Shown here: positions 30,755 through 50,933 of the stretch, piece by piece
Numbering within the stretch: position 1 is the first letter of the stretch
How the letters are laid out: each line of letters starts with the position of its first letter
Assembly (NCBI GenBank): GCA_016790705.1
Contig: JAEUOT010000058.1
Span: 124,001 to 188,000 of the forward strand
Length of the DNA: 64,000 bases
Reading direction: 5' to 3'
DNA from: Hydrogenophaga sp.
GTDB taxonomy: Bacteria; Pseudomonadota; Gammaproteobacteria; Burkholderiales; Burkholderiaceae_C
Notes under the pieces: generated by a model
What the model was told of the DNA's origin: nothing
Databases searched by the model: none
The model's input: the letters and a program-made list of their open reading frames with translations, nothing else
Program-made: the position numbers and the translations under genes

Positions 30755-30881
30755 GGGAGATGAAGGGCAGGTGTGGGCGTGGCGTGACCATTCTCGGTCA
30801 ATGGTTGCCGGGCTTGATCCGTTCCCCTGCTGCGCCTTAGCATTTGCCGACATCACCAGCGCTGATGCGGAAACCCATTCC

Positions 30882-34679: not shown

Positions 34680-35123
34680 GTGACCACACCCCGTTCCCCG
34701 CACACGCGCCGACCTTGGCTCGTCGGCCTGTCCGCCGGTCTTCTCGCCCTCTCCGGAACCGCCTGTTCCGGCACCACCCCCGTCAGGAATGCCATGAACG
34801 CCAACGCATCGCCCTCCCTCGTCAGCGCCTGGAACATCCAGTTTCGACCCGTGGGCAACGAGCAGGCCCAACTGAGCTTCCGCCCGCTGGTCTCCAGCGC
34901 CAAGAAGTACGTCGGCGCCGACCACCGCAGCGACGGCAAGACGCTGTGGGTCACGCTCAAGAGCTGCCTGGTCACCGAGACCTGCAGCGCCATGAGCCCG
35001 GCACAGCCGGCGCCGGGCAACGCCGACAAGTTCACCTACATGGTGGTGCTGCCGTACAAGGGCGAGAAGGTCATCGTGCAGGGGCAGGGCGAGGTGCAGG
35101 AGGAGTTGCCGGTCTCGCGTTGA
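34680..35123 (+). CDS. Predicted lipoprotein, candidate immunity protein of module A
   Basis: A 147-residue exported protein: signal peptide with Arg-rich start (TTPRSPHTRRPWLVGLSAGLLALSG) and a Cys at the expected lipidation point (GTACSG), though the -3 residue is not the usual Leu. The mature part is a small beta-rich-looking domain (SAWNIQFRPVGNEQAQLSFRPL ... FTYMVVLPYKGEKVIVQGQGEVQEEL). GTG 34680 follows a very good AGGAGG (34668-34674). It is 37 bases before the predicted effector gene at 35161, same strand. In X-T4SS toxin modules the immunity proteins are periplasmic lipoproteins encoded next to the effector; by that analogy this is the likely antidote. Confidence 0.75.
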   Translation: MTTPRSPHTRRPWLVGLSAGLLALSGTACSGTTPVRNAMNANASPSLVSAWNIQFRPVGNEQAQLSFRPLVSSAKKYVGADHRSDGKTLWVTLKSCLVTETCSAMSPAQPAPGNADKFTYMVVLPYKGEKVIVQGQGEVQEELPVSR

Positions 35124-35160
35124 GCCACTCTCGGTGCCAGCGTTTCAGGGGAGGAACAAC

Positions 35161-36045
35161 ATGTCGGATGAAGTCATCCTGGGCGTTCACAGCAACGTCC
35201 GCAAGGGGCAGATCGACCCCGAAACCGGCCAGCCCTACGGCTTCGACGCCGGTCACGCCTGGATCTCGGTCACGCGCAACGGCAAGACCACCAACTACGG
35301 CCTCTGGCCCGACGGCCATCCGCGCGTCGAAGACAACGGCAGCGGCAGCGACATCCGGACCGGCATGGAAGACGGCGACACACCCGCCGCCAGCCGCTAC
35401 TACCGTCTGACTCCCGAACAGGCCACCAAGCTCGACGGCCTGCTCAAGGCGAACGAAACCTGGGGCTACACCAACAACTGCTCGTCGTGGGCCCGCGACA
35501 CCGTCGAAGCGGTCACCGGCGTGCACCTGAACGCCGACGATCCCGGCGTACTCTGGACCGAGACGCCACGCCAGCTCGGCGACAGCATCCACCGCCTCGA
35601 AGAGAAAGACCGGACCAGCCCCACAAGCCCGACCACACCGCCCGTCAAAGGCAGCAGCACGCTCGGCGCCCGCGCCGACCTGTCGGACACGTCCCGCCAG
35701 TTGCTGCAGGACAGCGACCAGCACGTGAGGCGCCTGGCCGAACAGCACGGGCTGCCCTGGGACCAAGGAATGGACAACACCGTCGCGGCGGTGGCCCGAC
35801 AGGCGCGAGACGACGGCCTGACCGGCATCACCCACCTCAAGGCCGGTGGCGGCGAGCTGCGGTTTGCCCAGGCCGATGGCCACGGGCTCAAGGAAGGCGC
35901 GGTGGACGCACGCGCCGCCGCCAACACCCCGGCGCAAGAGTCCGAGGCCGCGCTGGCCATGGCCGACGCGCGAACGGCGCCGGCGCCCGTCGCCGACAGC
36001 CGTGGAGCGCTGCAGGTCGACGCGCCGGCGATGCAGATGGGCTGA
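35161..36045 (+). CDS. Predicted X-T4SS-like effector A: permuted papain-like peptidase plus XVIPCD
   Basis: A 294-residue protein without signal peptide. Residues about 1-150 hold GHAWISVTRNGK (His32) and WGYTNNCSSWARD (Cys107), a His-before-Cys order typical of circularly permuted NlpC/P60/LRAT/DUF4105-type cysteine peptidases or amidases; an attack on cell-wall peptides is plausible. A Ser/Thr/Pro linker follows (151-173). Residues about 175-270 match the XVIPCD layout: LLQDSDQHVRRLAEQHG, MDNTVAAVARQARDDGLTGITHLK, GELRFAQADG, LKEGAVDARAAANTP. That domain is the type IV secretion signal of Xanthomonas-type antibacterial effectors. The same domain is in the GH19 protein at 49216. ATG 35161 follows GGGGAGG. 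The catalytic assignment is an inference from motifs. Confidence 0.72.
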   Translation: MSDEVILGVHSNVRKGQIDPETGQPYGFDAGHAWISVTRNGKTTNYGLWPDGHPRVEDNGSGSDIRTGMEDGDTPAASRYYRLTPEQATKLDGLLKANETWGYTNNCSSWARDTVEAVTGVHLNADDPGVLWTETPRQLGDSIHRLEEKDRTSPTSPTTPPVKGSSTLGARADLSDTSRQLLQDSDQHVRRLAEQHGLPWDQGMDNTVAAVARQARDDGLTGITHLKAGGGELRFAQADGHGLKEGAVDARAAANTPAQESEAALAMADARTAPAPVADSRGALQVDAPAMQMG

Positions 36046-36046
36046 C

Positions 36047-36100
36047 CTAGGCCTGCCACACCCCGAACCCGGCCGAGCGCAGGTCAATGCCGATGTTGAC
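36047..36100. repeat. Direct repeat copy 1: relic of the GIY-YIG-like gene 3' end
   Basis: These 54 bases match 37515-37568 at 50 positions in the same orientation. On the minus strand they would read NIGIDLRSAGFGVWQA followed by TAG, i.e. the C terminus and stop codon of the gene at 37515-37838. The rest of that gene is absent here. The two copies bracket the whole module B (effector plus lipoprotein), as expected of an integrated cassette. Confidence 0.9.
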
Positions 36101-36115
36101 TCAGGGCGCAGACAC

Positions 36116-36970
36116 TCAACGGGTCATGGCTGGCGTCTCGGGCGTGCGCTCCGCAGGGGCAGCCTGGAGGCTGGGGGCAGTCGGCCGTCCGCTCGTCACG
36201 TCATGCGCCAGCGCATCGGATACCTTCATTTCTGATATCGCGCCCTCGTGTTTGAGGGCGATGGTCTCGCCATTTTTGCTGAGCAGATAGCGTTGGACCG
36301 GGCCGCGTTGAACGTTGGCTGCTTCAAGGCCCAGGGCTGATGCGCTGATCGTTCGGATCTGCTCCTCGGTGTACCCACGCGCTTGCAGATCTGGCCCAAG
36401 CTGTGCGGAAACTTTGTCCAACGGTGCCTTGCTGGGCGATGTGGTCGACTTTGCGTCCCCTGCCTTTTCCGCCCGGGGCTCAAATGGTGTTTCATAACCG
36501 CCGAACTTCTTCACGTACGAAGAGATGGGCGTTCCGTTGCCGTCCTTGCCGTCGGTCTTTCCGTTGGACGTGACGTAGTCCTTCAGCCCGCTGATGCCGA
36601 GCAGGTGCGCGCCGGCCAGCAAACCACTCTCGGTGATCTTCACGCCATCGCTCATGGTTTGGCCGACGTATTTGTCGAGACCGTAGTGGCGGATGTACCC
36701 CCACTGCACCTTCATGTAGTCCTTGATGGCGTTGTCCTGTGCTGCAGGAGACCCCAGGAAATCATCCTTGCTGCGGATGCCGTCTTTACCGGTCCAGGTT
36801 CCGGCCCAGTCGTTTTTGCGCGTGCCATCTTTCTGGTAGTAGCCGCTGTCGATCAGGGCCGGTTCGCCCATCTGATACTTGCCCAGATATCCGATCGGGT
36901 TCGCGATGTCGTACCTGCCACCGGACTCCTTGGCCGCCACCTCCTCCAGAAACTCGTTGTATGTCGGCAT
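36116..36970 (-). CDS. Predicted effector B: lysozyme-like peptidoglycan hydrolase with XVIPCD-like tail
   Basis: A 284-residue protein without signal peptide. Residues 1-160 look like the lysozyme/lytic transglycosylase superfamily: VAAKESGGRYDI (candidate catalytic Glu15), IGYLGKYQMGEPALIDSGYY (the GxYQM-type motif of goose-type and SLT lysozymes), AIKDYMKVQWGYIRHYG, and ESGLLAGAHLLGISGLKDYV. After a linker (165-185) residues about 186-262 resemble a diverged XVIPCD (GYTEEQIRTISASALGL, YLLSKNGETIALKHEGAISEMKVSDALAHDV). It ends TPETPAMTR. It lies 33 bases after its lipoprotein partner and converges with effector A. Confidence 0.7.
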   Translation of the reverse strand: MPTYNEFLEEVAAKESGGRYDIANPIGYLGKYQMGEPALIDSGYYQKDGTRKNDWAGTWTGKDGIRSKDDFLGSPAAQDNAIKDYMKVQWGYIRHYGLDKYVGQTMSDGVKITESGLLAGAHLLGISGLKDYVTSNGKTDGKDGNGTPISSYVKKFGGYETPFEPRAEKAGDAKSTTSPSKAPLDKVSAQLGPDLQARGYTEEQIRTISASALGLEAANVQRGPVQRYLLSKNGETIALKHEGAISEMKVSDALAHDVTSGRPTAPSLQAAPAERTPETPAMTR

Positions 36971-37003
36971 GTAGTTGTTCTCCCTGCTTGTGCTGCTGGC
37001 CGG

Positions 37004-37471
37004 TCAGGGGCAGCGCTTCGAAATCTCGTAGGCACTACCCTGCCAGTGCCACTCGGACGTGCAACTGCTGCCAGCATCCACGCCGAGATCCCGTACACCG
37101 GCCGTGCGGGTTGGCAACAGCCGCACATCGCCACCGGACTTGAACTGGCTGGTCCAGCGACCACCCGCCTTCACAAACACCTCCGAGGCCTGCCCAGCTT
37201 TTCCGAGGCACGACGAGCCAGACTTGACGATGAGGATGGCGGGTATCTGGTGACCGATCTCCAGCGGCTGCACCTCGTAGTCCACTCTCTGATTGGCGCA
37301 GGCGGGATCGACCACAGAGCCCTTCTCGGCCACCAGCAGCCCCCCGGAAGCTTCCTTGGCCCATGTCGTCACGCTCGGCTGGGTGGTCACTGTCGATGTC
37401 GTTGTGGAGCTGGCGCACGCCGCCAGAGTGGCTGCCAGCGCGCAGGCGGCCGCCCATCGAATTGAATGCAT
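37004..37471 (-). CDS. Predicted lipoprotein, candidate immunity protein of module B
   Basis: A 155-residue exported lipoprotein: signal peptide MHSIRWAAACALAATLAACASS with lipobox LAAC. The mature part contains several Cys (VVDPACANQRVDYEVQPL, VKSGSSCLG, GSSCTSEWHWQG, SKRCP) likely forming disulfides. ATG 37471 follows AGGGAG on the minus strand. It is the first gene of a two-gene unit with the lysozyme-like protein, 33 bases apart, so it is the likely periplasmic antidote to it. No family is recognised. Confidence 0.75.
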   Translation of the reverse strand: MHSIRWAAACALAATLAACASSTTTSTVTTQPSVTTWAKEASGGLLVAEKGSVVDPACANQRVDYEVQPLEIGHQIPAILIVKSGSSCLGKAGQASEVFVKAGGRWTSQFKSGGDVRLLPTRTAGVRDLGVDAGSSCTSEWHWQGSAYEISKRCP

Positions 37472-37514
37472 GAAAACTCCCTGAAAAAGCAACGCGTCAT
37501 TCTAGAAGTGGCGA

Positions 37515-37568
37515 CTACGCCTGCCACACCCCGAACCCGGCCGAGCGCAGGTCGATGCCGATTTCGAC
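37515..37568. repeat. Direct repeat copy 2: intact 3' end of the GIY-YIG-like gene
   Basis: The second copy of the 54-base direct repeat (see 36047-36100), including the TAG stop codon and the last 17 codons of the gene. The distance between the repeats is about 1.47 kb and contains only module B. Confidence 0.9.
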
Positions 37569-37838
37569 CTCGCGTTCTTGCGCAGTCTCGTAGCTCATGG
37601 GGTTAAAGCCCTCGTACAGATCGGGCAGCAGGCGCAGCCCGTACCTCATCACGTAGGCGTTGGCCTGGATGCCCGCCTTGTGTTTGTCGAAGCGCACATC
37701 CGGGTCCAGCCCCGTCATGCCCACGTACACACACGGTTTGCCCTCGACATAGCCCGGATTGCATTTGCGAAAGCGCGGCTCCTGCAGCACATCCGGGTGC
37801 AGCTCGATCACGTAGACGTGGTGGTGGGGGCGGGGCAT
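37515..37838 (-). CDS. GIY-YIG-like small protein
   Basis: A 107-residue protein with HHVYVIELHPDVL and CVYVGMTGLDPDVRFDKHKAG, which fits the two half-motifs (V-Y-V...Y-V-G) of the GIY-YIG nuclease fold, though the pattern is loose and homologues are often listed as hypothetical. The end YETAQEREVEIGIDLRSAGFGVWQA is duplicated as a relic at 36047-36100. Whether it is an active nuclease is unclear. Its 3' end appears to have served as the integration point of module B. Confidence 0.65.
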   Translation of the reverse strand: MPRPHHHVYVIELHPDVLQEPRFRKCNPGYVEGKPCVYVGMTGLDPDVRFDKHKAGIQANAYVMRYGLRLLPDLYEGFNPMSYETAQEREVEIGIDLRSAGFGVWQA

Positions 37839-37852
37839 CGGCCGCCTTCGGC

Positions 37853-38359: not shown

Positions 38360-39075
38360 TCGGCGGCCTCTTGTTCGTCTGGGGTCTTCAGCCAGCGGGA
38401 CCACTCGACCAGATGCATCGTGAAGACCGCACCGAGCACCACCATCGTGAGCGTGATCGTGGCGTTTTCAACCACGGGCCAGACGTCGCTGCCGAGTTTG
38501 TCGAAGCTCCCGCTCATCATGCTCAAGCCCGGGGCCTGCATGACCCCGATGTAGACCAGGGCCAACAACACAATCACGGCCCGTCGGCCCTTGGGTAGCG
38601 ACACGCTGCGCTGTGCGCCGAGCGCAAAGAGGATCAGCGCAGCCAGTGCGATGGACAACAACGTGCCGGCCAGGCTTACTTCGACCGAGAAGAACCGGGC
38701 GCCCAGTCCGCCCCCATAGACATCGGACAGTACGCTCTGGCCCCGAAAACCCAGGTGCTTGAGTAAGCGCGTCAGAGAAAACACCGGTTCGAGAACCACA
38801 CCCAGCGCGACCGACAGCAGCAGCGCGTCCAGGGTGGTGGCCTCCGTCCCGGGTCGAACCGTGCTGACCGGGGCAGGTCCTGCGGCTTTGGACGGCTTGC
38901 CGGCGGGGCGGGCGTGTGGCGTGGTGACCTGGTCTGCGGCCGCAGGCGGTGGCGCAGGCGGACGGTACTTGCCATAAATGATCCCGCACCGAGGGCATTC
39001 GTAGGCCGGAGCACGCTCCTCCTCCTTGCGGATGTACCCGCATTTCGGGCACACCTTCAACTCAAGCAGCTTCAC
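38356..39075 (-). CDS. Zinc-ribbon multi-pass membrane protein
   Basis: A 239-residue protein: N-terminal zinc ribbon (VCPKCGYIRKEEERAPAYECPRCGIIYG, four Cys), a Pro/Ala-rich linker (to about 75), then about four membrane helices. The layout of a cytosolic zinc ribbon joined to a membrane domain is seen in uncharacterised proteins with functions in membrane or envelope stress; here I can only state the layout. It is the first gene of a two-gene operon with 37853. Confidence 0.75.
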   Translation of the reverse strand: MKLLELKVCPKCGYIRKEEERAPAYECPRCGIIYGKYRPPAPPPAAADQVTTPHARPAGKPSKAAGPAPVSTVRPGTEATTLDALLLSVALGVVLEPVFSLTRLLKHLGFRGQSVLSDVYGGGLGARFFSVEVSLAGTLLSIALAALILFALGAQRSVSLPKGRRAVIVLLALVYIGVMQAPGLSMMSGSFDKLGSDVWPVVENATITLTMVVLGAVFTMHLVEWSRWLKTPDEQEAAE

Positions 39076-39289
39076 GGTCTCCTCCCCTTCGTCCGGTTGT
39101 AAGGTTTTGTGTCCGGATGATAAGTGAGCCGAAGGTCAGGCAATCAGTGCGCCGGATCTCGCATCGGCAGTGTGGGGCTGCACCTGAAAGACGATGAGGC
39201 GGTTGGCGACGCGTTGCCTGCGTCAGCCAATCTGGCGCGGCTCAGGTTTTCAAGGAGACCTCAACCAACTGCACCGGAGCTCATACAGC

Positions 39290-39334
39290 GCTTTCGACAT
39301 CGCGTAGGACGTAATCAAGGTGATGACGCTACGT
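39290..39334 (+). pseudogene. Helicase motif V relic (fragment 1)
   Basis: ATCAAGGTGATGACGCT at 39314-39330 is identical to 42462-42478 and encodes IKVMTL, the start of the motif V region of a UvrD-like helicase. The bases before it read SAFDIA-stop-DVIKV, in line with the same protein but already broken. The reading is lost after 39334, where the next gene begins (its 3' end is at 39335). The 215 bases before it (39076-39289) hold nothing I recognise. Confidence 0.45.
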
Positions 39335-40306
39335 CTAGTTGTGTTTCCCGGAGAACACGACTTCTTTGAAGAAATAGGCTGTCGGGTCCCAACGCGGACG
39401 GTTCTGCCTCGGGCCTTCCGTCGTGTACTGCCCCTCTGCATCGGAGCAGGCGACGGGGAGGTTCAACTCGTCGAGGGAACGGTTTTCCACCGAGCCATAG
39501 ATCATGAGGGCTGTGTACTCGGCGACCTTTTCGGTCGAATCGATTCGATTGACCGAGTACCCGACACGCAGGACGCCGTTTCGCCTGTCCTCTTCCGTCG
39601 TTTGGTCGACTTGGGATACCTCGTATTCGGCTCTAGGACCGATGTCTTCTAGACCGACGATGCCTTCTTCCTTGGAGGAATGTGGCCAGGGTTGGCTGCT
39701 CCTCGCGAGTTCTCTTTTCCGGACTTCAGGATGCTGGTCCCACCAGGCCACGCGCGCGATCCGCTGGTACTTCCATTCAACGTAGGCCACGCCACCTCGC
39801 ACCATCGACGCCGCCAGCGCTTCGTTTGAATGAAGCCACGGGGGAGTTTTGGGCGGGCGCGTTGGATCATTCTGCTCCCGTTCACTTTGGTCCTTTTTCT
39901 TGTCGGGTTCCGAGATGCGAATACCGGCATCCGGTTCAATGGCTCTACCGTATGGGGCTGGCCGCTGCGCACACTGGCGCATCAAATAAGCCCGAGCGTT
40001 GGAGTGAGCCGTTTGCAAGTCCATTTCCAGCCTCTCGGCGTGCTTGGCCTTGCTCAACTTGAGTTGCTCAAGCGCGGCCCGTTCCGCTTGTCGCTCCGTC
40101 TCCAGATGCGACCGAATTGCCACAGTCGTTCCGAGGAATACCAAAACGGTCACCGCCGCTGCCGTGGGGACTCGTATCGCCTTGCTTGACGTGATCTTGC
40201 CCACCAAGCCGTAAAAGCCAAGGAAAGCGACGTATCCCAACCCCAGAGCGATCGCAGCGACCACTGCAAAGGCCGCAAAGATCACCAGTTTCAAAAATAC
40301 GAGCAT
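39335..40306 (-). CDS. Hypothetical membrane-anchored protein
   Basis: A 323-residue protein with two N-terminal membrane helices (MLVFLKLVIFAAFAVVAAIALGLGYVAFLGFYGLVG and AAAVTVLVFLGTTVAI), a charged coiled-coil-like stretch (HLETERQAERAALEQLKLSKAKHAERLEMDLQ), and a soluble C-terminal domain with many Trp and Arg (WHLHS-type and VEWKYQRIARVAWWDQHP). No recognised family. Its 3' end abuts a helicase relic, so it may have been brought in by the same events that broke the helicase gene. Confidence 0.6.
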   Translation of the reverse strand: MLVFLKLVIFAAFAVVAAIALGLGYVAFLGFYGLVGKITSSKAIRVPTAAAVTVLVFLGTTVAIRSHLETERQAERAALEQLKLSKAKHAERLEMDLQTAHSNARAYLMRQCAQRPAPYGRAIEPDAGIRISEPDKKKDQSEREQNDPTRPPKTPPWLHSNEALAASMVRGGVAYVEWKYQRIARVAWWDQHPEVRKRELARSSQPWPHSSKEEGIVGLEDIGPRAEYEVSQVDQTTEEDRRNGVLRVGYSVNRIDSTEKVAEYTALMIYGSVENRSLDELNLPVACSDAEGQYTTEGPRQNRPRWDPTAYFFKEVVFSGKHN

Positions 40307-40359
40307 GTGTCCCCCTTGCGATCTGCGTTTTCCTACTTGGAAGCCTACAAGCCGTGGGA

Positions 40360-40686
40360 CTAGATCCGTTGATAGGTGCCTCGGCACGCGCCGCAACTGC
40401 AGGCCGTGCGCAGCGGCGGCGGCTCGCCAGGTTGGACAAGCGCCTCCTTGTCTTCGTACACCGAGATGGTGTCTCCACAAATGGGACAGGGCGTCCTGTT
40501 TTGACGCGTTGCGGTAAACGCTTTGAGCGCAACCACTGCTGCATTGGAAGCTGCGGATAGGCGCTGAAACTCTTCCGCAGGGTCGGGGGGGCTGAGTTTG
40601 TACGAAGCCGCAGCAATGATGACCACCACCACAACGAAAACAAAGGCCAAAGCCGCAACAGCAAGAAGAACGAAATCGCCGCCCAT
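40360..40686 (-). CDS. Small membrane protein with C-terminal zinc-finger-like cysteines
   Basis: A 108-residue protein: N-terminal membrane helix (VLLAVAALAFVFVVVVVIIAAASY), then a domain with CPICG and CSCGAC, five closely spaced Cys that suggest a zinc site. It is 53 bases upstream of the 39335-40306 gene on the same strand, possibly one operon. No family recognised. Confidence 0.6.
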   Translation of the reverse strand: MGGDFVLLAVAALAFVFVVVVVIIAAASYKLSPPDPAEEFQRLSAASNAAVVALKAFTATRQNRTPCPICGDTISVYEDKEALVQPGEPPPLRTACSCGACRGTYQRI

Positions 40687-40969
40687 GAGCCACCCTGTGT
40701 GTCTTGTTCGTATTGTTGCGAATGATAGGAGCTCTTTGGTTGGCGCATCCAGCGACCGAATGCCCGGCTTTCAATGGCGACAGCATCCCAGGGATATCCA
40801 GGAAGCTGTGACAAGAACCGACTGGACCGCTTCACTGTTTCGTCGTACTGCGCCGGTGGCCCAGCGCTTCTTACTCCCGCTTGATGACCGGCGAAAGGTC
40901 CAACAGGTTGCGCGCGTGGCGCGGTCGCTGCTTCGGGGTGGGCGACCGCAGCGCTTGCGCCGGGGGCAG
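40687..40969. other. Gene-free stretch upstream of helicase relic
   Basis: About 280 bases without a convincing gene. Short segments look coding-like (for example an open frame ending LLDLSPVIKRE-stop on the minus strand near 40877-40930), but I cannot assign them. It is probably part of the decayed insertion region. Confidence 0.3.
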
Positions 40970-41115
40970 GTCACCAGCCAACGGCCTGCTCGTGCTGTAC
41001 GACGACGCGCAGAGCGTCTACGAATGCGCGCAGAAGAAAAAACTTCTAGTTTGAGAGTCTGGGCATCCAGGCGCAGGGGCGCACCACCATTCTCAAGATC
41101 AACTACCGCGACGAA
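40970..41115 (+). pseudogene. UvrD-like helicase fragment 2 (broken)
   Basis: The stretch reads NGLLVLYDDAQSVYE..AQKKK and, after a one-base frame change at the A-run near 41037-41042 plus a TAG, FESLGIQAQGRTTILKINYRD. This is the Walker B/motif III neighbourhood (LYDDAQS) and the GRTTILKINYR segment of superfamily-1 helicases. Both a frameshift and a stop codon are visible, so the gene is dead. It continues in frame into an IS3 transposase fragment. Confidence 0.65.
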
Positions 41116-41296
41116 TTCAACCGCGAAGGGTTGCGCATCGAAGTCGATTCCAGCCTGTCGGGTGCGCGCGTCATCCGCGCGCTCAACGAGCTGGTTGAAG
41201 TGCGCGGAGCGCCACCGTCGATTCGCCTGGAGAACGGCCCGGTGCTCGTCGCCCAAGCCTTGGCCCAATGGGCGCAGTCATTCGAGAGGACTTCAA
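41110..41296 (+). mobile_element. IS3-family transposase OrfB fragment
   Basis: From about 41110 the frame reads DEFNREGLRIEVDSSLSGARVIRALNEL, then PPSIRLENGPVLVAQALAQWA. This matches the DDE core of IS3-type transposases (DDFNREGL.IEVD.SLPA.RVIR.L, then the I-R-x-DNGPE catalytic Asp), except that the catalytic Asp-Asn-Gly-Pro-Glu is now ENGPV, so both the Asp and Glu are lost. No OrfA, no terminal repeats. It is an internal remnant joined in frame to the helicase relic. Confidence 0.65.
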
Positions 41297-41434
41297 GTCA
41301 CCTTTTTGGGTGATGGTGGGACAGAACGATGAGGCGCACACTATAAAGGCATGTGTGACATATTGGGCCGCAGATGCATGGACCTATAAACCCTTGTCGT
41401 TAAATGACTAAGTAGTCTCATTCCGGAGGAAAAG

Positions 41435-41797
41435 ATGTTAAAAATTTCTCGCGGTATCGTGCTCATGGCGCTCATGGGTTGTGCTGGGCATGGCTTTGGT
41501 GCAGATCTTCAAACGCGGAAGAGTGTAGATAAGATAAATGAGGATAAATTGTTGCAGGCCAACGATTCTCAGTCAATTAAAAGAGACGTCCCTATTAGAA
41601 CTCTTCCCGGGGGGTCCTGGAGAAATAGTTGTGATTTCAATCCAGTGGCTGGGTGGCGTTCTGATTATGTATTTGGATATAGTTGTTCAAGGAAGAGTCG
41701 AACATTTGGCTCGTATTGGGATAACAGCACTTGCCCAGAAATGATAACGTGCTTTAGCTGGAAATCCTTAAGAATGCGGTGTGGGGAGACTTGCTAA
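41435..41797 (+). CDS. Small secreted Cys-rich protein, possibly CVNH-like
   Basis: A 120-residue protein with a signal peptide (MLKISRGIVLMALMGCAGHGFGAD) and a mature domain with six or more Cys and the pattern PGGSWRNSC, YSCSRKSRTFGSYWDNSTC, which is reminiscent of cyanovirin-N-homology domains (GSY..SC ... C....W....LD..C). The evidence is slim. GGAGGA at 41425-41430 is a strong ribosome site. The codon use is AT-richer than the flanking chromosome. It stands alone between relics. Confidence 0.5.
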   Translation: MLKISRGIVLMALMGCAGHGFGADLQTRKSVDKINEDKLLQANDSQSIKRDVPIRTLPGGSWRNSCDFNPVAGWRSDYVFGYSCSRKSRTFGSYWDNSTCPEMITCFSWKSLRMRCGETC

Positions 41798-42274
41798 TTG
41801 TTGCATTGGTATGCAATCGCGTGTTTGCTGCCTATATTTTCGCGAGAGTGCTGAGCCAATAGCAAGAATCGAATTCGTCACGGTACGAGCCCCTCGAACT
41901 GAGGCAGGATTGGGTGAGCCGAGTATCTGCTGTTGGGGTGGATTTCGAATTGTTTCACTCCACGGCGGTGGGGAGCCATAATCCGAAGATCTCAGACTTC
42001 GCGTTTGCTTATCGTTGATAGGATTCGTCGCTCGGACAGTGAGTACGGGAGCCTCAGCATTGGCTGCGCAGAGCGCTGAATTTGAAATGCGCAGTAAAGC
42101 CTGGGCTAAGTCGCGCTGGAGGCGACTCAAACGGAAGTCCGACGCCGCAAGGGGCCGCGCGAGAGCACCTTTGACGACCAAGGCGGCGATGGAGTCGACC
42201 ACAAAGCGCGGGTGTTTTGGTTCAACGAGAGAGATGTGCGAATCTATCGCCACAAATGGGGATCCTTGGGCGAC
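41798..42274. other. Gene-free stretch in the relic island
   Basis: About 480 bases with only disjoint open frames on both strands and no protein I recognise. It lies between the CVNH-like gene and helicase fragment 3 and probably contains further decayed coding sequence. Confidence 0.3.
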
Positions 42275-42530
42275 CACTGACACCAGGTGGCCGAGCTGCT
42301 GCCACAGCCCACCGTGAAGGCCACGCCTGGGCCGACATGGGCATCCTCTGCCGCCTCCACAGCGAAATGGATATGTGCGCCGAATTCCTGCGTAAACGCA
42401 AGCTGCCGCACCAGTTGCTCCGGAACTTGTCCAGCGTGTTCGACCTTGCCACGACAGCAGTATCAAGGTGATGACGCTGCACGTCAGCAAAGGGCTGGAG
42501 TTCTCGGTGGTGGCAAGTTTTCCGCTTGCA
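42275..42530 (+). pseudogene. UvrD-like helicase fragment 3 (frameshifted)
   Basis: Reading forward: VAELLPQ, then after a frame change AHREGHAWADMGILCRLHSEMDMCAEFLRKRKLPHQ, then a stop and another frame change, then SIKVMTLHVSKGLEFSVVA. The last part is helicase motif V (T.H..KGLEF.VV). At least two frame changes show it is dead. Its end is repeated at 43464, with an orphan membrane gene between the two copies. Confidence 0.65.
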
Positions 42531-42688
42531 TCCGAGGATAAAAAATTCTGAACCTTGTGACTGTTGCTACGATGTATGCGGTTTAGTGAAATAAGTTTGC
42601 TTTTAGTCGGACTGCAAATTTCAAATAGTTGGGCTTTTGTGAGAGGACTCTTGTGTTGGAGTGAGCTGGGAAATTAAAGGAGATATGT

Positions 42689-43417
42689 ATGAAGTCGCCG
42701 ATTGCTCGTCCAGGAACAAATATGTTCATGGTCTTCTCAATGCTTCTGCTTGGCGTTTTTGCCTCGGCATTAGTCGTAACTTTTGACTTCTGGATAAAAA
42801 ATGATGAGTTGGCATTATCTACCGCAGTGATAAGAAAAATTGCAGAAAGAAATGTCCCTACCGCGTGGGTTGTTGCCATTGCAGGTCCGACAGCTATGTC
42901 AATTGGTTTCTTTTTTTATCTAATTTCTTTTTTTCTGCTGGCGGTTCCGGCATTTGGGCTGCGGAAGTTCATTGAAAAAATAAGCAAAAATCAAAAAATT
43001 GACATCTTTCAACAGGTCAGCGAAAAGACAATTAAGAACTATCTGCCTGAGGGAGTGACTGTTGTGCCAGGTAGAAAATTTTCTGATGCCTTTATGTATC
43101 TATTGTTGACAAGTCGAGATTCGCATATAGCATCTGCGGCCCGGTTTTCATTTACGCAAATCATGTTCGCTCGATCCATAGGGGCTATCATGATCGGATT
43201 TTCATCTTATTTGTGTTGGATTCAATTAATTCCGTTGAAATCTAGTATTTTAATTATTGCGGCTACTTGGGTGTCTTTGATAGCGCTCTATGGAGTGGGT
43301 TTGACTTTTTTTGAACGCGTGGTGATTTCGGGGATTTTGATTGAGAGGCTTCATCAAAAGACGAGGCCGCAAAGTGGCAGTGCAAAGCAAGTCAGCAGTG
43401 GAGATAAGAGCAGTTAG
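42689..43417 (+). CDS. Orphan AT-rich membrane protein
   Basis: A 242-residue protein with about four membrane segments (NMFMVFSMLLLGVFASALVVTF, AMSIGFFFYLISFFLLAVPAFGL, ARSIGAIMIGFSSYLCWIQLI, SILIIAATWVSLIALYGVGL) and a cytosolic loop in the middle. AAAGGAGATAT before ATG 42689 is a good ribosome site. It is much AT-richer than the chromosome and lies between two copies of a 45-base helicase segment. No family recognised; a horizontally acquired cargo gene. Confidence 0.7.
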   Translation: MKSPIARPGTNMFMVFSMLLLGVFASALVVTFDFWIKNDELALSTAVIRKIAERNVPTAWVVAIAGPTAMSIGFFFYLISFFLLAVPAFGLRKFIEKISKNQKIDIFQQVSEKTIKNYLPEGVTVVPGRKFSDAFMYLLLTSRDSHIASAARFSFTQIMFARSIGAIMIGFSSYLCWIQLIPLKSSILIIAATWVSLIALYGVGLTFFERVVISGILIERLHQKTRPQSGSAKQVSSGDKSS

Positions 43418-43463
43418 GTATTGCTTGCAACCCCCAGGTGCTCTTGATTCGAGTTGAGAAATT

Positions 43464-43652
43464 TTGATGACGCTGCACGTCAACAAGGGGCTGGAGTTCC
43501 CGGTGTTGGCGCTGGTGGGCGCCGGGCGCATGCCCGCCGTGGCAGAAGACGAGCGCGAGGAGGCGCGGCTGTCTTATGTGGGGGCCACTCGGGCGACGCA
43601 GCGGTTGGTGATTAGGGCGGGTGGGGGAGGGAAGTTCGCCACGCGTATGTAG
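43464..43652 (+). pseudogene. UvrD-like helicase C-terminal fragment 4
   Basis: An open piece encoding MTLHVNKGLEFPVLALVGAGRMP (motif V) and EDEREEARLSYVGATRATQRLVI (motif VI, with the Arg finger region), ending GGKFATRM-stop. It is the C terminus of the same helicase as fragments 1-3. Without its upstream ATPase domains it cannot be functional. It ends 37 bases before the SIR2 gene's stop codon. Confidence 0.7.
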
Positions 43653-43689
43653 TCTTTTTGCTGGACTTGATCGCAATATTTTCTGCGAG

Positions 43690-44577
43690 TCACGCGTACA
43701 AGAGTCCGTTAGCCAAAAGCTCCTTGCGTCTCTCGCCACTCTTTTGAGCAAGCTCTTCGAGAATCATTGCTAGCTGCTCGTGATCATTGTCGGGCTTATA
43801 TCGAATAATCGATAGGCGCCGAAATTTTTTCCATAAATCGTCTGTTTCGTCGGATTCTCCTGATTGGAGAAGGTAGTGTGGCCTGGCATTCTGATGCGAA
43901 TATGCATATGACTCGAGGATGCTCGATATCGCTGGGTCGGCCATTGAAAATCCGATGAAAAGGAATGTATGCGTTAGAAGCAACGATGAAATGAAGTCTT
44001 TATAGTAAAAATTTTCATGCGCCCCGGACAAGTATGATGATTTGTCGAAAATCATCTCCTCTTGCTTGTCGATGTCGCCATGTAGTTTGATAATGTAATT
44101 GTTGTCGTCCCTGAACAGTTTGAATGCGTCCTTGTCGATTTTTGTGATTATGGTTGGGTAGCTTCGATCATTTGAATGCTCAATGTCCCAGGCAGTCTCT
44201 ATTAGCTTGTCAAAGTTTGTTGTTACAGTTATGCGTGGTTTTAGGCTTGTAACTGCCTTGTGGAGACGCGAAGGAGGTGCTTTTTTGCCAAAGGAGTCCC
44301 TGACGAAATCTTCCCATTGGTGTCCCAATTTTTCCTTAAGTAGTTGGCTTGCGAATAGGTATTCTTTTTCATTGACTAGTTGCTCTATTTTTCCCTTGAG
44401 TCTAGTGTCGTCCAGCAGAGATGTTGCATCATTAAGAAACTTGGCCCAGTCGGAAAAAGTACCGCCTCCATTTGGTTTCGCCCATTTTGAAGCTCCAGCC
44501 CCAATAAAAGGTACGAGCCTGCGCCGCGCTGCATCGGTTATCAGATCCGCGTTTAGCATGGTCGGTCCAGCGATCAC
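43690..44577 (-). CDS. SIR2-domain protein, candidate defence effector
   Basis: A 295-residue SIR2-like protein: PFIGAGAS (NAD-binding, residues 24-30), TVTTNFDKLIE (119-127, the Asn-Asp of the catalytic loop), IIKLHGDID (with His166) and FLFIGFSMADP (207-215). Proteins of this kind act as NADases that deplete NAD+ on phage infection in Thoeris, DSR, Nezha and pAgo-linked systems. Here it is the second gene of a two-gene unit, overlapping the ParA-like gene by 4 bases. AT-rich relative to the flanks. The defence role is inferred from the family and not shown. Confidence 0.85.
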   Translation of the reverse strand: MIAGPTMLNADLITDAARRRLVPFIGAGASKWAKPNGGGTFSDWAKFLNDATSLLDDTRLKGKIEQLVNEKEYLFASQLLKEKLGHQWEDFVRDSFGKKAPPSRLHKAVTSLKPRITVTTNFDKLIETAWDIEHSNDRSYPTIITKIDKDAFKLFRDDNNYIIKLHGDIDKQEEMIFDKSSYLSGAHENFYYKDFISSLLLTHTFLFIGFSMADPAISSILESYAYSHQNARPHYLLQSGESDETDDLWKKFRRLSIIRYKPDNDHEQLAMILEELAQKSGERRKELLANGLLYA

Positions 44578-45638
44578 AGGATATGGTGATCCAGATTCTC
44601 GATAAAGCGCTCAGATATACCCTTGAAAATTTCTCTTGCCTGTGCTCGCGTTGTCGTATAGCTGCCTTTCAGGGTCACGGTGATCATCGGTGAGTGAAGT
44701 GACTGGGACTTTGGGGCGAGGCTCGCAAGATGCTTAATAGTTCCGAGGCTTGGGTTGTATTCCCTGCTTGGAAAAAAATCCCTGAGAACCCGTGAAATTT
44801 CGCTGGGAATTTTGTCTTGGATAGATGCGTATGCTTCCACTACTCGAACATTGCCTGACTCGGATTTTTCTTTGTGTTGCTGGGTAACGTAGCCAAGGAA
44901 CCCAATTTTTTGGTTTCTTCGGAAGCTTTCGTTAATCTCAGATGGGTCCTCTGCTAGGCGAAGGCCATTGTTTATTTCATTTTGCCAAACTTTCAAGGCT
45001 TCTCCAATGTTCTTAATTGCCCATATTGAAAATATGTCAATTGACATCGGCATTAGAAAGAAGTCGGCGGAAAGTAGGATGGATCTGTTAATTGCACCCA
45101 GGGATGGGCCCATGTCGAAGAAAATAAAATCGTAATCCTTGCTTGCTTTGGAGATTAGGTCGGAAAAAACAAAAGTAGTCTTCAGTCCCCTGATTCCTCC
45201 TGCTTTTGCGTCGCGCCAGTCTTGAGCAAGCAGGTCTTCTTTGAGTGCTAGTCTTGGGTCTCCGATGATGATGTCAAAACCGAAATTCTTTGTTTTTCTA
45301 ATCGGTAGATTATCGGAATATCCTTTTCCAATGGAAAGGGGGTGTATTACATTGAAAATGGTGTTTGCTATGGGGTCTCCGGAGTAAATCTCCGTAAACT
45401 CATCATCTGTGAGTGCGTATTGAGTGAGGTTGCACTGCGGGTCTGCATCCACCACTAAAATGCGAAGCTTGTCTACTAAAGAGAGCTGGGCGGCTAGATT
45501 TGCTACCAAGGTTGTTTTTCCAACACCTCCTTTGTTGTTGAAAAAACAGATTGCCTTTGCAGACTTTTGTCCAAGTGCGTCAAACCTTCTTTTGAGTTCG
45601 GTGGTTCTAGCGGTGGAGATGCGCGTACGAGTAGTCAT
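44574..45638 (-). CDS. ParA/Soj-like ATPase paired with SIR2 protein
   Basis: A 354-residue ParA-family ATPase: deviant Walker A NNKGGVGKTT (residues 34-43), ADPQCNLTQ (A'), and DYDFIFFDMGPSLGAINRS with the Walker B Asp. N-terminal 25 residues look like a short helix. Middle and C-terminal parts lack a ParB-like partner in the window. It is 18 bases after the glnS stop on the same strand and overlaps the SIR2 gene by 4 bases. ParA ATPases can position or assemble partners; in a defence unit it may sense or organise the SIR2 effector. A partition role is unlikely, as no parB or parS is seen. Confidence 0.85.
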   Translation of the reverse strand: MTTRTRISTARTTELKRRFDALGQKSAKAICFFNNKGGVGKTTLVANLAAQLSLVDKLRILVVDADPQCNLTQYALTDDEFTEIYSGDPIANTIFNVIHPLSIGKGYSDNLPIRKTKNFGFDIIIGDPRLALKEDLLAQDWRDAKAGGIRGLKTTFVFSDLISKASKDYDFIFFDMGPSLGAINRSILLSADFFLMPMSIDIFSIWAIKNIGEALKVWQNEINNGLRLAEDPSEINESFRRNQKIGFLGYVTQQHKEKSESGNVRVVEAYASIQDKIPSEISRVLRDFFPSREYNPSLGTIKHLASLAPKSQSLHSPMITVTLKGSYTTTRAQAREIFKGISERFIENLDHHIL

Positions 45639-45656
45639 TTGTCGTCCTATCTTGGA

Positions 45657-47516
<1,860 letters not shown>

Positions 47517-47582
47517 TCGCCCATTCTAGGGCGGCGAATGAGGGGAACCCAGGCTTCGTCAGGTCTCGAACCTGTGCCCCGC

Positions 47583-48422: not shown

Positions 48423-48520
48423 TGGTTGACTCGCCTCTGTCGTTGAATGCAGAGAACAGGTTAGCCGTCGTGCGGCTGAGGTTGCCATGGCTTTGCCTCA
48501 GCTTGTGCCATAGGGCGTGA

Positions 48521-49105
48521 TTACCGTGTCCATCCCCGGCGTTTCACCCACTCGGGGTCGTCGACCATATGGGACATGAATGATCCAAGGTCGTCGTCCT
48601 TGTAGCGGCGCACGCAACGCGGGTCCGATGCAGATGCACCCAGCGGCCACCAGCCGGACGGAGCCTTTTCTGCGGTGATCGCCATCTGGTCGTTGGCTTC
48701 AACATCTCTGCCCATCGCGAACTGCAGGAACGCTCCTTTGTCCGTCGTGACAAACATGTTCTGCTGCGCGGAGACGGAAACCGTCTGTGTCATGAACCGT
48801 TTGTAGTCCTGGGGGTTTTCAGGGTGTTGAAACTGCACTTGACCTTGCCGGGTGCCGATGGCCACGTAGACGTATCCGGGGTTGTCTTCAGCCTTCCCCT
48901 GGAATCTGTGGAAGCCTGCTGACCCGCAAAGCGATATCACGCGCTGGTCTGTCAGTTCGCAGGAGAAGCCCGCGACTTCCTGCGGCTTGCACAGGTGGCG
49001 CTCCGTGCCGCGGGAGGCTGTTGGGCCAGTTGCACATGCGCTCATGGACGACGCAGCGATACCGACAGCAAGCGCTGCCGAAAAGAGGCGAGATGATTGA
49101 TTCAT
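48521..49105 (-). CDS. Second lipoprotein of module C (immunity paralogue)
   Basis: A 194-residue predicted lipoprotein (signal peptide SRLFSAALAVGIAASSMSACATGP, lipobox MSAC). It is clearly related to the lipoprotein at 50298: both show C-KPQE, FSCEL.D.R..S.C, F.G...DNPGY.Y...GT..G.VQ, P.NP.DYK, all in the same order. So the two arose by duplication. It lies 110 bases downstream of the GH19 effector. As in other toxin loci, an extra copy could be a second antidote against related toxins of rivals. Confidence 0.75.
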   Translation of the reverse strand: MNQSSRLFSAALAVGIAASSMSACATGPTASRGTERHLCKPQEVAGFSCELTDQRVISLCGSAGFHRFQGKAEDNPGYVYVAIGTRQGQVQFQHPENPQDYKRFMTQTVSVSAQQNMFVTTDKGAFLQFAMGRDVEANDQMAITAEKAPSGWWPLGASASDPRCVRRYKDDDLGSFMSHMVDDPEWVKRRGWTR

Positions 49106-49142
49106 GTTGTGAATTCGATCCGCTGACCGTGGTCGCGGCGTG

Positions 49143-49199
49143 TGTGACAAGCGGTCGATTGTGTCTTTCTCGTTGTGCGCTGGAATCCCGCAAACTGGG
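49143..49199. repeat. Duplicated upstream segment, copy near second lipoprotein
   Basis: 57 bases that match 50968-51024 at 50 positions, each copy lying about 35-40 bases before the start of a lipoprotein gene (49105 and 50933). It shows that the duplication covered the upstream region as well as the gene and that the effector lies between the two copies. It overlaps part of the intergenic space after the GH19 gene, including no other element. Confidence 0.85.
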
Positions 49200-49215
49200 T
49201 GCGTCTGCGGCGAGA

Positions 49216-50301
49216 TCAGTGAGTGAGCGCAGGTTCCTGCACGCGAACCGGCTCGGGTGCCGACGGGGCCGTTGCACGTTGAACCGGCGCCTTGTCCGCC
49301 TGCACCATGCGGCCCACAGACTCGTCCACCCCGGTGTTGGCCGCCACCTTTGCGTCGATCTGCGTTTCGCGCAACGGCTCGCCCTTGGCCTGTTGGGCGA
49401 ATCGGATCTGGCCGTCGACGACCTTGAGGCCGGTGATGTCGGTCATGCCCTGTTCGCGGGCCGACTGGGCGACGGCGAAGACGGTGTTGTCCATGCCCCG
49501 GTCCCAGGGAAGCTTGGCCTTGTCGGCCAACGCCCGGACATGGCGCTCGGCGTCCCGCAACAGTTCGCGGCTGGTGTCGTTGAGCTGGGACAGCGCTTCG
49601 GGGTGACGGTAGAGCGCGTCCTGGAGATAGCCTTTGTCGAGGGCGGCGGCCCAGGCGGTGGCGTTGGCTTGGCGGTCTTCGAGACCTTTGACTTTTCCGC
49701 AGATATCGCCCGTGTTGATGATCGAGCCTGCGTCGGTGACGCTGCCTCGATCTTTGGTCTTTGGCTGGACGTTGTCCTTCCAGTAACGAACGGCCAGTGT
49801 TTCGGCGTTGCCCTGGTCTGCTGCAAGGTCAGGCCGGTTGACAAGGTCCAGGCCAGTTTTTTGCTGATAGTTCGTGTAGTTGTCTCTGCCGGTCAACTGG
49901 ATGTAGCCACGACCGCGGTACTGGTAGCCGTCATCAGGTTCAGAGTTGCCGAGGTTCTTCTCACCCCATGCGCCACCGTAGATCTTGTTGGCAATGGCCT
50001 GGTGCCGCTGCTGAGGGTCTTCGATGGCCGCCAGTTCTCCGGCTTCTTTCTCGGTCAATACGTTGCGGGGCGGTACCTTGCCTCCGCCTTTGAAGGTGTC
50101 CCACAGGACGGAGCCCCGGTAGTTCAGGTTCTCTTCCAGTCGAGAGAAGTTCTGGCTCTCGTGCTGCGTCTGCCCCATGAAATTTGCCAGTTCCTTCGTA
50201 TCGGTGATGCCGCTGCGGTAGGCAGTCACCAACAGTGACTCGGCCCGCTCCCGCTGTCGAGCCGTGGCAAGCCCCGGAACCACGGGGTCGTTGGCGCTCA
50301 T
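49216..50301 (-). CDS. Predicted X-T4SS-like effector C: GH19 muramidase/chitinase-like plus XVIPCD
   Basis: A 361-residue protein without signal peptide. Residues about 15-230 are a glycoside hydrolase family 19 domain: FMGQTQHESQNFSRLEENLNY (catalytic Glu48 and following Glu), KIYGGAWGEKNLGN, YQYRGRGYIQLTGRDNY and the substrate-binding LAADQGNAETLAVRYWKD. GH19 endolysins and the Xanthomonas effector XAC2609 cut peptidoglycan. Residues about 242-336 match the XVIPCD plan (LLRDAERHVRALADKA, MDNTVFAVAQSAREQGMTDITGLK, GQIRFAQQ, PLRETQIDAKVAANTGVDES). The end is QEPALTH. ATG 50301 overlaps the lipoprotein stop codon (ATGA), coupling antidote and toxin. Confidence 0.78.
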   Translation of the reverse strand: MSANDPVVPGLATARQRERAESLLVTAYRSGITDTKELANFMGQTQHESQNFSRLEENLNYRGSVLWDTFKGGGKVPPRNVLTEKEAGELAAIEDPQQRHQAIANKIYGGAWGEKNLGNSEPDDGYQYRGRGYIQLTGRDNYTNYQQKTGLDLVNRPDLAADQGNAETLAVRYWKDNVQPKTKDRGSVTDAGSIINTGDICGKVKGLEDRQANATAWAAALDKGYLQDALYRHPEALSQLNDTSRELLRDAERHVRALADKAKLPWDRGMDNTVFAVAQSAREQGMTDITGLKVVDGQIRFAQQAKGEPLRETQIDAKVAANTGVDESVGRMVQADKAPVQRATAPSAPEPVRVQEPALTH

Positions 50302-50933
50302 GGTTGTTTGGCTTTGGCTTTTTCGGCTTCGCCTCGTTCTCGCTGTGGGTCCATCCAGGCTGAATCGTGCATGACTCCTGCGCCAAGGTAGCCGTCGAAC
50401 TCCAGCACGCGTTTGCATGCGCGCTTCTTGTCATTTGGTTTGATGGGCCAGCCGTCGGGCAAATTCTCAGGGGTCCATCGACCTGCCCCACCTTGTGGTT
50501 CGGATACCTCCTGTTCTGAGAAGAAGAAAAACTCTCCTTTCTCGGACGTGACAAACAGGTACGGAATGACGTGGGCGGATACGCCTTTGAAGAAGTGCTT
50601 TTTGTAGTCGTAGGGGTTGGGGGGGTAGCTGTACTGCACCACGCCTTCAGGTGTGCCGACGACCAGATAGGCGTAGCCCGGGTTGTCTTTGGGCTGTCCC
50701 TTGAACGTCGAGAGTTCCGGCGATGTGCACATGGACAACAGCCGGTGGTCTTGCAACTCGCAGGAGAAACGGACGGATTCTTGGGGTTTGCAGTTGTGGG
50801 TCGCGGGCGTCGCGCTTTGGGTGGCGGATGCCGTGGAGGGGCCTGCAGCACAGGCGCTCAGTGAAACCGCCGTGACGACGCCCAACAGTACGGTGGCCGC
50901 AGCGAGGCCGCGAAAGCGTGGTGATTTGTTCAT
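50298..50933 (-). CDS. Predicted lipoprotein, candidate immunity protein of module C
   Basis: A 211-residue lipoprotein with signal peptide NKSPRFRGLAAATVLLGVVTAVSLSACAAGPS (lipobox LSAC). Mature domain with conserved Cys pairs, related to the paralogue at 48521 but not to the module A and B lipoproteins. Translation is coupled to the GH19 effector (4-base overlap), so it is made with it. In Xanthomonas, the GH19 effector XAC2609 is neutralised by the lipoprotein XAC2610 encoded beside it; the present gene holds the same place. Confidence 0.78.
   Translation of the reverse strand: MNKSPRFRGLAAATVLLGVVTAVSLSACAAGPSTASATQSATPATHNCKPQESVRFSCELQDHRLLSMCTSPELSTFKGQPKDNPGYAYLVVGTPEGVVQYSYPPNPYDYKKHFFKGVSAHVIPYLFVTSEKGEFFFFSEQEVSEPQGGAGRWTPENLPDGWPIKPNDKKRACKRVLEFDGYLGAGVMHDSAWMDPQRERGEAEKAKAKQP

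What the first reader, a model, noticed from the sequence alone, without database searches (positions are those of the whole stretch)
34680..50933. Three toxin/antidote-like modules with an X-T4SS type secretion domain in one 16-kb accessory region
Seen: proteins at 35161-36045, 36116-36970 and 49216-50301 lack signal peptides, have cell-wall-degrading-type N-terminal domains (Cys-peptidase-like, lysozyme-like, GH19), and each has a lipoprotein gene next to it (34680, 37004, 50298). The A and C proteins share a ~95-residue C-terminal domain with DxxLL.D...HVR.L, LPWD.GMDNTV..VA..AR..G.T.IT.LK, G..RFAQ, and DA..AANT in the same order. Known: XVIPCD is the recruitment domain for the antibacterial type IV secretion system of Xanthomonas and relatives, whose effectors are paired with lipoprotein immunity proteins. 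Inference: this is an X-T4SS-like effector arsenal in a Burkholderiales chromosome; the Cys-peptidase-like member may be an unreported effector type.
Basis: partly seen in the sequence, partly recalled or inferred. Interest (0 to 1): 0.9.

Follow-up and report, generated by a model that had tools for sequence, protein, structure and literature searches.

The report
Second delivery tag for bacteria-killing secretion
A Hydrogenophaga-type bacterium carries genes for a secretion machine of a type known to kill neighbouring bacteria, and a scattered set of toxin-like proteins for it; two in this window bear the known delivery tag and a third bears a different, distantly related tag that the standard search model misses.

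Summary
The finding holds and extends. The genome (genus Hydrogenophaga) has an X-T4SS locus on another contig: eleven of twelve VirB/VirD4 subunits by Pfam, VirB5 by position, VirB7 with an N0-type domain. Proteins A (35161-36045) and C (49216-50301) carry the XVIPCD recruitment domain; C aligns almost end to end with the X-T4SS effector TfcB. Each has a lipoprotein-like gene upstream.

B (36116-36970) has no Pfam-recognisable XVIPCD. Its phage-tail-lysozyme domain is followed by another C-terminal domain ('dom2'), which recurs on five more effector-like genes in this genome, one beside virD4. Across 67 genomes of the genus dom2 is in 20 of 20 with the X-T4SS VirD4 and 2 of 47 without (75 matches, against 47 for XVIPCD). 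Profile comparison makes dom2 a remote XVIPCD homologue. VirD4 of this lineage has an extra C-terminal tail with an E[Y/H]TGLxG[I/V] motif (14 of 14 loci, 0 of 66 others).

X-T4SS in Hydrogenophaga is already published; my four literature searches showed no report of dom2 or the tail.

The parts
34680..35123 (+). lipoprotein-like gene, probable immunity protein of A (imperfect lipobox LSGTAC)
   Evidence: 37 bp upstream of A; no Pfam family
35161..36045 (+). effector A: N-terminal domain with invariant His and Cys (permuted papain-like? inferred) + C-terminal XVIPCD
   Evidence: PF20410 26.7 bits, cut-off 24.9; invariants in 5 aligned sequences, 3 of them close orthologues of each other
35698..35955 (+). 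XVIPCD of A (residues 180-265)
36116..36970 (-). effector B: phage-tail-lysozyme domain + dom2
   Evidence: phrog_27932 E 2.2e-24; relatives over residues 1-284 at 80% and 74% in two congeners
36161..36436 (-). dom2 of B (about residues 179-270)
   Evidence: B itself is in the profiles; not recognised by Pfam
37004..37492 (-). lipoprotein gene, probable immunity protein of B
   Evidence: lipobox LAAC; 33 bp upstream of B
48521..49150 (-). second lipoprotein, 37% identical to that at 50298: possible extra immunity gene
49216..50301 (-). effector C: GH19 domain + XVIPCD, TfcB-like
   Evidence: PF00182 34.7 bits; residues 14-332 align with TfcB 7R6S 3-313, E 8.3e-28
49306..49566 (-). XVIPCD of C
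   Evidence: 26.7 bits in the genome scan; 22.8 in the protein scan
50298..50933 (-). lipoprotein gene, probable immunity protein of C (4-bp overlap with C)
   Evidence: lipobox LSAC

Best explanation
A, B and C are antibacterial effectors of the genome's own X-type T4SS, each encoded behind its immunity lipoprotein. The effectors are made without a signal peptide and are recruited in the cytoplasm by the coupling ATPase VirD4 through a C-terminal domain. They are passed through the VirB channel into the periplasm of a touching Gram-negative cell, where the N-terminal domains cut peptidoglycan (B, C, probably A). The lipoprotein protects the producer. Two sister recruitment domains are in use: classical XVIPCD (A, C) and dom2 (B and five other genes in this genome). 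Dom2 is a remote, lineage-expanded XVIPCD homologue that Pfam PF20410 does not recognise. Shown by computation: domain content, gene pairing, the T4SS locus, genus-level co-occurrence, the remote homology. Inferred: recruitment, translocation, enzymatic action, immunity.
For: XVIPCD by Pfam in A, C and a lipase-type gene on contig C51. C aligns almost end to end with TfcB. X-T4SS locus on C14: VirB7 with a TcpQ/N0-type domain (27.3 bits, cut-off 27). A gene with dom2 (P0008) directly follows virD4 and a lipoprotein gene there; its N-terminal domain is a weak relative of A's (33%, E 7.7e-4). Dom2 is in 20 of 20 genus genomes with the X-T4SS VirD4 (>=900 bits) and 2 of 47 without (55% and 64% complete); Fisher P 4e-15, not corrected for kinship. 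All 36 distinct dom2 copies examined end 14-54 residues before the C-terminus. hhalign dom2 vs XVIPCD: E 2.5e-6, score 35.6; best of 200 column shuffles 17.5, reversed 15.0. In 47 other X-T4SS genomes the dom2 profile gave 6 weak hits in 5 genomes: 3 lie on Pfam XVIPCDs (L217 72.8, L219 73.9, L222 69.5 bits; cut-off 24.9), a fourth (L216) on the C-terminus of a lipase-type protein next to an XVIPCD paralogue, 2 on unrelated sequence. Of the 9 effector genes in this genome, 6 have an upstream gene passing a strict lipobox rule, against 12 of 211 sampled genes (4 of those 12 are these very genes).
Against: No experiment and no structure model (structure prediction switched off). Dom2 matches no XVIPCD chain in the PDB sequences at E up to 10, and only 1 of 12 dom2 members touches PF20410, at E 0.071. 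The profile comparison with smaller input alignments gave only probability 25%, E 7.5e-4. The co-occurrence is confounded by common descent, and 6 of the 12 rows of the dom2 profile used for it come from X-T4SS loci of the same genus. A profile from this genome alone gave the same picture in the smaller family sample: present in G000, G208 and G280, which have the VirD4, absent from congener G114, which lacks it. G355 has an XVIPCD gene but no X-T4SS VirD4 or dom2. VirB5 was assigned by position (no Pfam hit). The gene upstream of A fails the strict lipobox rule. A's catalytic class is unproven.
Confidence: 0.85

Rival explanations
1. Dom2 is not an X-T4SS recruitment domain but serves another route, such as one of the other T4SSs in the genome or a T6SS; A and C alone are X-Tfes.
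For: Dom2 is not recognised by PF20410. The genome has three further VirB4-type loci (C9, C10, C55), and the Tle1-like domain (PF09994) is named for T6SS.
Against: A dom2 gene sits in the virB/virD4 cluster. 20 of 20 genus genomes with the X-T4SS VirD4 have dom2; the 9 congeners whose only match at E <= 1e-100 is a lower-scoring VirD4 (432-444 bits: G307, G319, G320, G335, G340, G347, G350, G357, G360) have none. DUF2235 (PF09994) is listed among X-Tfe domains in PMC6536674 section 13. Remote homology to XVIPCD. T6SS genes were not searched for.
Confidence: 0.07
2. Dom2 is simply the Hydrogenophaga version of XVIPCD, read at the same VirD4 site, with no functional difference. (Compatible with the best explanation; a rival of the novel case.)
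For: Remote homology and same position; bridge sequences in Lysobacter and Luteimonas genomes, such as L216:1282-2565.
Against: Both forms coexist as distinct families within single genomes (19 of 20 X-T4SS VirD4 genomes counted as having both, G349 of these on one marginal hit), and the lineage's VirD4 has an added tail. Neither excludes this reading.
Confidence: 0.5
3. A, B and C are phage-lysis or housekeeping cell-wall enzymes.
For: The N-terminal domains of B and C resemble phage tail lysozyme and endolysin.
Against: C-terminal recruitment domains, upstream lipoprotein-like genes, no phage structural genes recognised nearby, sites scattered over the genome.
Confidence: 0.02
4. The loci are decayed remnants; the system is not functional here.
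For: One dom2 gene (C71) is broken into separate ORFs; a short ORF at L008:13200-13481 looks by eye like a truncated copy of the VirB5-like gene.
Against: The other virB/virD4 genes, A, B, C and the other effector genes are open.
Confidence: 0.08

Closest known systems
X-T4SS effectors (X-Tfes) with XVIPCD, e.g. XAC2609 (7MU9) and TfcB of Stenotrophomonas maltophilia (7R6S; PMC11253643, passages read)
   Same: A and C: C-terminal XVIPCD, cell-wall-type N-terminal domain (clear for C), lipoprotein neighbour; C aligns almost end to end with TfcB
   Different: A's N-terminal domain has no Pfam family; B has dom2 instead of a Pfam-recognised XVIPCD
X-T4SS of Hydrogenophaga (PMC6536674; passages and section 13 read)
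   Same: Same genus; its Table 1 lists Hydrogenophaga sp. A37 MUNZ01000181 and HGW PHCC01000002, both among my VirD4 loci (L065, L067)
   Different: The parts read name only XVIPCD as the signal; dom2 and the VirD4 tail do not appear in them (the rest of the paper and its figures were not read)
Atypical T4Es of Lysobacter enzymogenes (PMC10989847; abstract and passages read)
   Same: Toxin plus immunity-like protein, lacking a recognised XVIPCD
   Different: Those are XVIPCD-less homologues of effectors; dom2 proteins carry a distinct conserved C-terminal domain
Coupling proteins whose C-terminal tails bind substrates or adaptors (F plasmid TraD, Legionella DotL; recalled, no call)
   Same: A linker and conserved terminal motif added after the ATPase
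   Different: The E[Y/H]TGLxG[I/V] motif was found only in the Hydrogenophaga-type loci among the 80 searched; function unknown

Membership tests
X-T4SS (criteria of PMC6536674) | located in chromosomal DNA | tested here: met
   135-kb contig C14, flanked by folP-type (PF00809) and phosphoglucosamine-mutase-type (PF02878-80) genes; that these are core genes is recalled
X-T4SS | VirB7 with C-terminal N0 domain | tested here: met
   PF10671 TcpQ 27.3 bits, cut-off 27; that TcpQ is N0-like is recalled
X-T4SS | all twelve VirB/VirD4 subunits | tested here: inconclusive
   11 by Pfam (VirB1 as a generic SLT domain); VirB5 by position only, no Pfam hit
X-T4SS | putative effectors with C-terminal XVIPCD | tested here: met
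   3 in this genome above the PF20410 cut-off
X-Tfe: A | C-terminal XVIPCD | tested here: met
   26.7 bits, cut-off 24.9
X-Tfe: C | C-terminal XVIPCD | tested here: met
   26.7 bits (over 24.9), but 22.8 (below); supported by the TfcB alignment through its XVIPCD
X-Tfe: B | C-terminal XVIPCD as defined by PF20410 | tested here: not met
   no PF20410 hit at E up to 5; remote homology only
X-Tfe | adjacent gene for an immunity lipoprotein | tested here: met
   B and C by strict lipobox; A only by an imperfect lipobox; immunity itself untested
X-Tfe | VirD4 binding and T4SS-dependent secretion | not testable with these tools
   needs experiments
GH19: C | GH19 profile and the two catalytic Glu positions | tested here: met
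   34.7 bits, cut-off 25.5; Glu present in C at the columns aligned with TfcB HES and RLNE, taken by eye to be its Glu34 and Glu43
NlpC/P60 peptidase: A | PF00877 profile, Cys before His | tested here: not met
   no such Pfam hit; the conserved His of GH-x-W precedes the Cys; that NlpC/P60 has Cys first is recalled

The most novel reading that the evidence does not exclude
The Hydrogenophaga X-T4SS uses two distinct recruitment codes. Dom2 is a second signal class, and the lineage-specific VirD4 C-terminal tail with its E[Y/H]TGLxG[I/V] motif is a second docking element that co-evolved with it, so one machine sorts two effector classes.
Probability: 0.25. Interest if true: 0.78.

Novelty: new variant of a known kind. 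Interest (0 to 1): 0.62.

Why it matters
X-T4SS effectors are usually found by searching for XVIPCD. In Hydrogenophaga that search misses the larger part of what the profiles find: 75 dom2 matches against 47 XVIPCD matches in 67 genomes (recounted; both counts at E <= 0.001, with weak and partial hits included and a capped first look, so neither is exact). PF20410 itself misses classical copies there: 0 in G208, where a broader profile found 2. A dom2 profile opens a new set of candidate antibacterial toxins and immunity proteins, and the VirD4 tail gives a direct test of how one coupling protein reads different secretion signals.

Tried and rejected
An early idea that G208 uses dom2 only (0 PF20410 hits) was dropped: the A4 profile finds 2 XVIPCD copies there. 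The best remaining dom2-only cases are G349 (99% complete; its single XVIPCD hit is partial, E 6.3e-4, with an internal stop) and G300 (81% complete, none). The dom2 profile match to BurrH/TALE repeats is a 28-residue helix with no significant single repeat; rejected as relationship. A DUF5625 link between the P0008 immunity-type lipoprotein and a Burkholderia ambifaria plasmid protein is weak (19.9 bits, cut-off 26.9; direct BLAST E 0.081). A prophage origin was judged unlikely. Viral-contig scans found no relative of A and one of B's lysozyme part; A's N-terminal part had no match in phage records or, as a profile, in PDB chains. Two of the six weak dom2 hits outside Hydrogenophaga (L220, L221) fall on unrelated sequence. 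Literature searches: 12 papers, all listed; 66 papers, 20 listed; 5; 1. The listings and the passages read from three papers show neither dom2 nor the tail; 'dom2' is my own label, so no search could name it, and subscription journals are not held.
Full report
Observation. A (35161-36045, +), B (36116-36970, -) and C (49216-50301, -) are open as described, each behind a lipoprotein-like gene. A and C share a C-terminal domain at 49% identity over 124 residues. Pfam calls it X-Tfes_XVIPCD: A 26.7 bits against a cut-off of 24.9, C 22.8; the genome scan gives 29.0 and 26.7. C is GH19, and its residues 14-332 of 361 align with the solved effector TfcB (7R6S), E 8.3e-28. B's N-terminal domain is a phage tail lysozyme (phrog_27932, E 2.2e-24; matches in 43 phage records). 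A's N-terminal domain has no family in Pfam, NCBIfam or PHROGs. In an alignment of five sequences (three of them close orthologues) it has invariant Gly31-His32, Trp34, Tyr46-Gly47, His53, Cys107 and Trp110, among others. Its relatives are the virD4-linked protein P0008 (33%, E 7.7e-4) and a Calothrix plasmid protein (31%, E 3e-7). A permuted papain-like fold is an inference from the His-before-Cys order.

Organism. The genome (3.75 Mb, 71 contigs, 84.75% complete) is placed with 66 others in one genus. Its congener G280 has its VirD4 at the same contig position as the Hydrogenophaga pseudoflava CZa25-1 locus L063, so the genus is Hydrogenophaga.

The machine. There are four VirB4-type loci. 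The one on C14 runs folP-type gene - virB1-4 - small genes and virB5-like - virB6-11 - two small genes - virD4 - lipoprotein - P0008 - phosphoglucosamine-mutase-type gene (families; VirB5 by position only). VirB7 carries a TcpQ/N0-type domain (27.3 bits, cut-off 27). Of 183 related stretches found with VirD4 the best 80 were kept: 14 Hydrogenophaga-type at 68-91% identity, then 66 at 56-64%, mostly Xanthomonadales with one Neisseria and one Hydromonas. Another Comamonadaceae genome, G190, also has such a VirD4 (63%). Three of the four published X-T4SS criteria are met and the twelve-subunit one is open for VirB5. X-T4SS in Hydrogenophaga is already published (PMC6536674; passages and section 13 read).

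The arsenal. PF20410 finds three XVIPCD genes in the genome: A, C and a lipase-type gene on C51. B's C-terminal region finds five more genes at E 2.5e-5 or better, and three weaker matches (E 0.15-0.59), one of them with internal stops, that I did not count. The five are C27 (weak TNT match, E 0.069), C71 (broken Tle1-like), C68 (Lipase_3, 20.4 bits, under the cut-off of 22), C14 (P0008) and C2 (Tle1-like, over the cut-off). Of the nine genes, six have an upstream gene passing a strict lipobox rule; A and C2 have imperfect lipoboxes by eye; C27 has an upstream gene without one. The background is 12 of 211 genes, including four of these six; the pair test allowed slightly later alternative starts than the background test. 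The lipoproteins of the two Tle1-like genes are related (35%, E 1e-20).

Dom2. In the genus the B-type domain occurs in 22 of 67 genomes: all 20 with the X-T4SS VirD4 (>=900 bits) and two others that are 55% and 64% complete (Fisher P 4e-15 without correction for kinship). Six of the 12 rows of that profile come from X-T4SS loci of the genus, so the test is not wholly independent. A profile from this genome alone matched 4 of 299 genomes of the family: G000, G208 and G280, which have the X-T4SS VirD4 (over 1000 bits), and G084 weakly (E 3.1e-4), whose best VirD4 match is only 423 bits; congener G114 has neither, and G190 has VirD4 and XVIPCD but no dom2. There are 75 dom2 and 47 XVIPCD matches in the genus. 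All 36 distinct dom2 copies that I examined end 14-54 residues before the C-terminus. Around 80 VirD4 loci, dom2 was found 9 times, in 7 of the 14 Hydrogenophaga-type loci and none of the 66 others. Over whole genomes reached by 50 of those loci, the 3 Hydrogenophaga-type controls gave 4 hits each (50 bits or more). The 47 others gave 6 weak hits (E 1.6e-5 to 0.008) in 5 genomes. Three of the six lie on Pfam XVIPCDs (L217, L219, L222) and one on the C-terminus of a lipase-type protein beside an XVIPCD paralogue (L216, itself without a Pfam XVIPCD hit). Two lie on unrelated sequence, one of them a hemerythrin.

Homology to XVIPCD. A profile seeded with A, C and the C51 gene grows to 58 hits in 18 of the 80 VirD4 loci, and a 13-sequence profile hits 7R6S, 7MU9 and 9P3H. 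Dom2 against the grown profile gives hhalign E 2.5e-6, probability 88.8, over 78 columns at 9% identity. The best of 200 column shuffles scores 17.5 against 35.6, and the reversed profile 15.0. With smaller input alignments it is only E 7.5e-4, probability 25%. Dom2 finds no XVIPCD chain in the PDB sequences at E up to 10, and 1 of 12 members touches PF20410, at E 0.071. I read dom2 as a remote, lineage-expanded sister of XVIPCD.

The receptor. VirD4 of the Hydrogenophaga-type loci runs 481-522 residues from the Walker A to its end in 13 of 14 loci (429 in L073), against 412-445 in 64 of 66 others; the two exceptions, L087 and L135, run 618 and 707. The extra tail is a variable linker followed by E[Y/H]TGLxG[I/V] near the end. 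A six-frame search finds this motif in 14 of 14 Hydrogenophaga-type loci and 0 of 66 others; in L073 it lies outside the VirD4 ORF that I read. G190 lacks it. Tail and dom2 both mark one clade, so their association may be common descent rather than a functional pair.

Mechanism. Knowledge of X-T4SS (PMC6536674) and this anatomy give: cytoplasmic effector, recruited by VirD4 through XVIPCD or dom2, translocated into a neighbouring Gram-negative cell, cell wall or lipid attacked, producer protected by the lipoprotein. Only the anatomy is shown here.

Verdict. The finding is real and its interpretation right for A and C. B reveals a second recruitment-domain class. The system type is known; I saw neither dom2 nor the VirD4 tail in the literature listings and passages named above.

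Noticed in passing
43690-45638: SIR2-like protein (PF13289; PADLOC ThsA/LmuA-like) next to a ParA/AAA_31-type ATPase, in a low-GC stretch (39000-45640, GC 0.513 against 0.644 for the window): candidate anti-phage defence pair.
   Followed up: partly
48521-49150: Lipoprotein paralogue of the putative C immunity gene on the other side of C: possible spare immunity gene.
   Followed up: partly
L008:11900-15058: In the vir locus, repeated small lipoprotein-like ORFs alternate with virB5-like copies, one of them short: looks by eye like a local tandem duplication.
   Followed up: no
L223:4427-10378 (Burkholderia ambifaria plasmid pBMC401): The start of a large 'calcium-binding protein' is 35% identical to the N-terminal part of P0008 and follows a DUF5625 protein: the same toxin-like domain may be used by another secretion route.
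   Followed up: partly
L010 and L011 (contigs C10 and C55): Two similar trb-type conjugation clusters with matching upstream genes: likely related integrative elements in one genome (by eye).
   Followed up: no
G355:C59:78466: A congener with an XVIPCD gene but no X-T4SS VirD4 or dom2: an orphan effector-like gene.
   Followed up: no
L025:4483-5805 (contig C71): A Tle1-like dom2 gene is broken into separate open frames while its upstream lipoprotein gene is open.
   Followed up: partly
30131-30976: EcsC-like protein, below the Pfam cut-off (23.9 against 30.4 bits), near the effector cluster.
   Followed up: no
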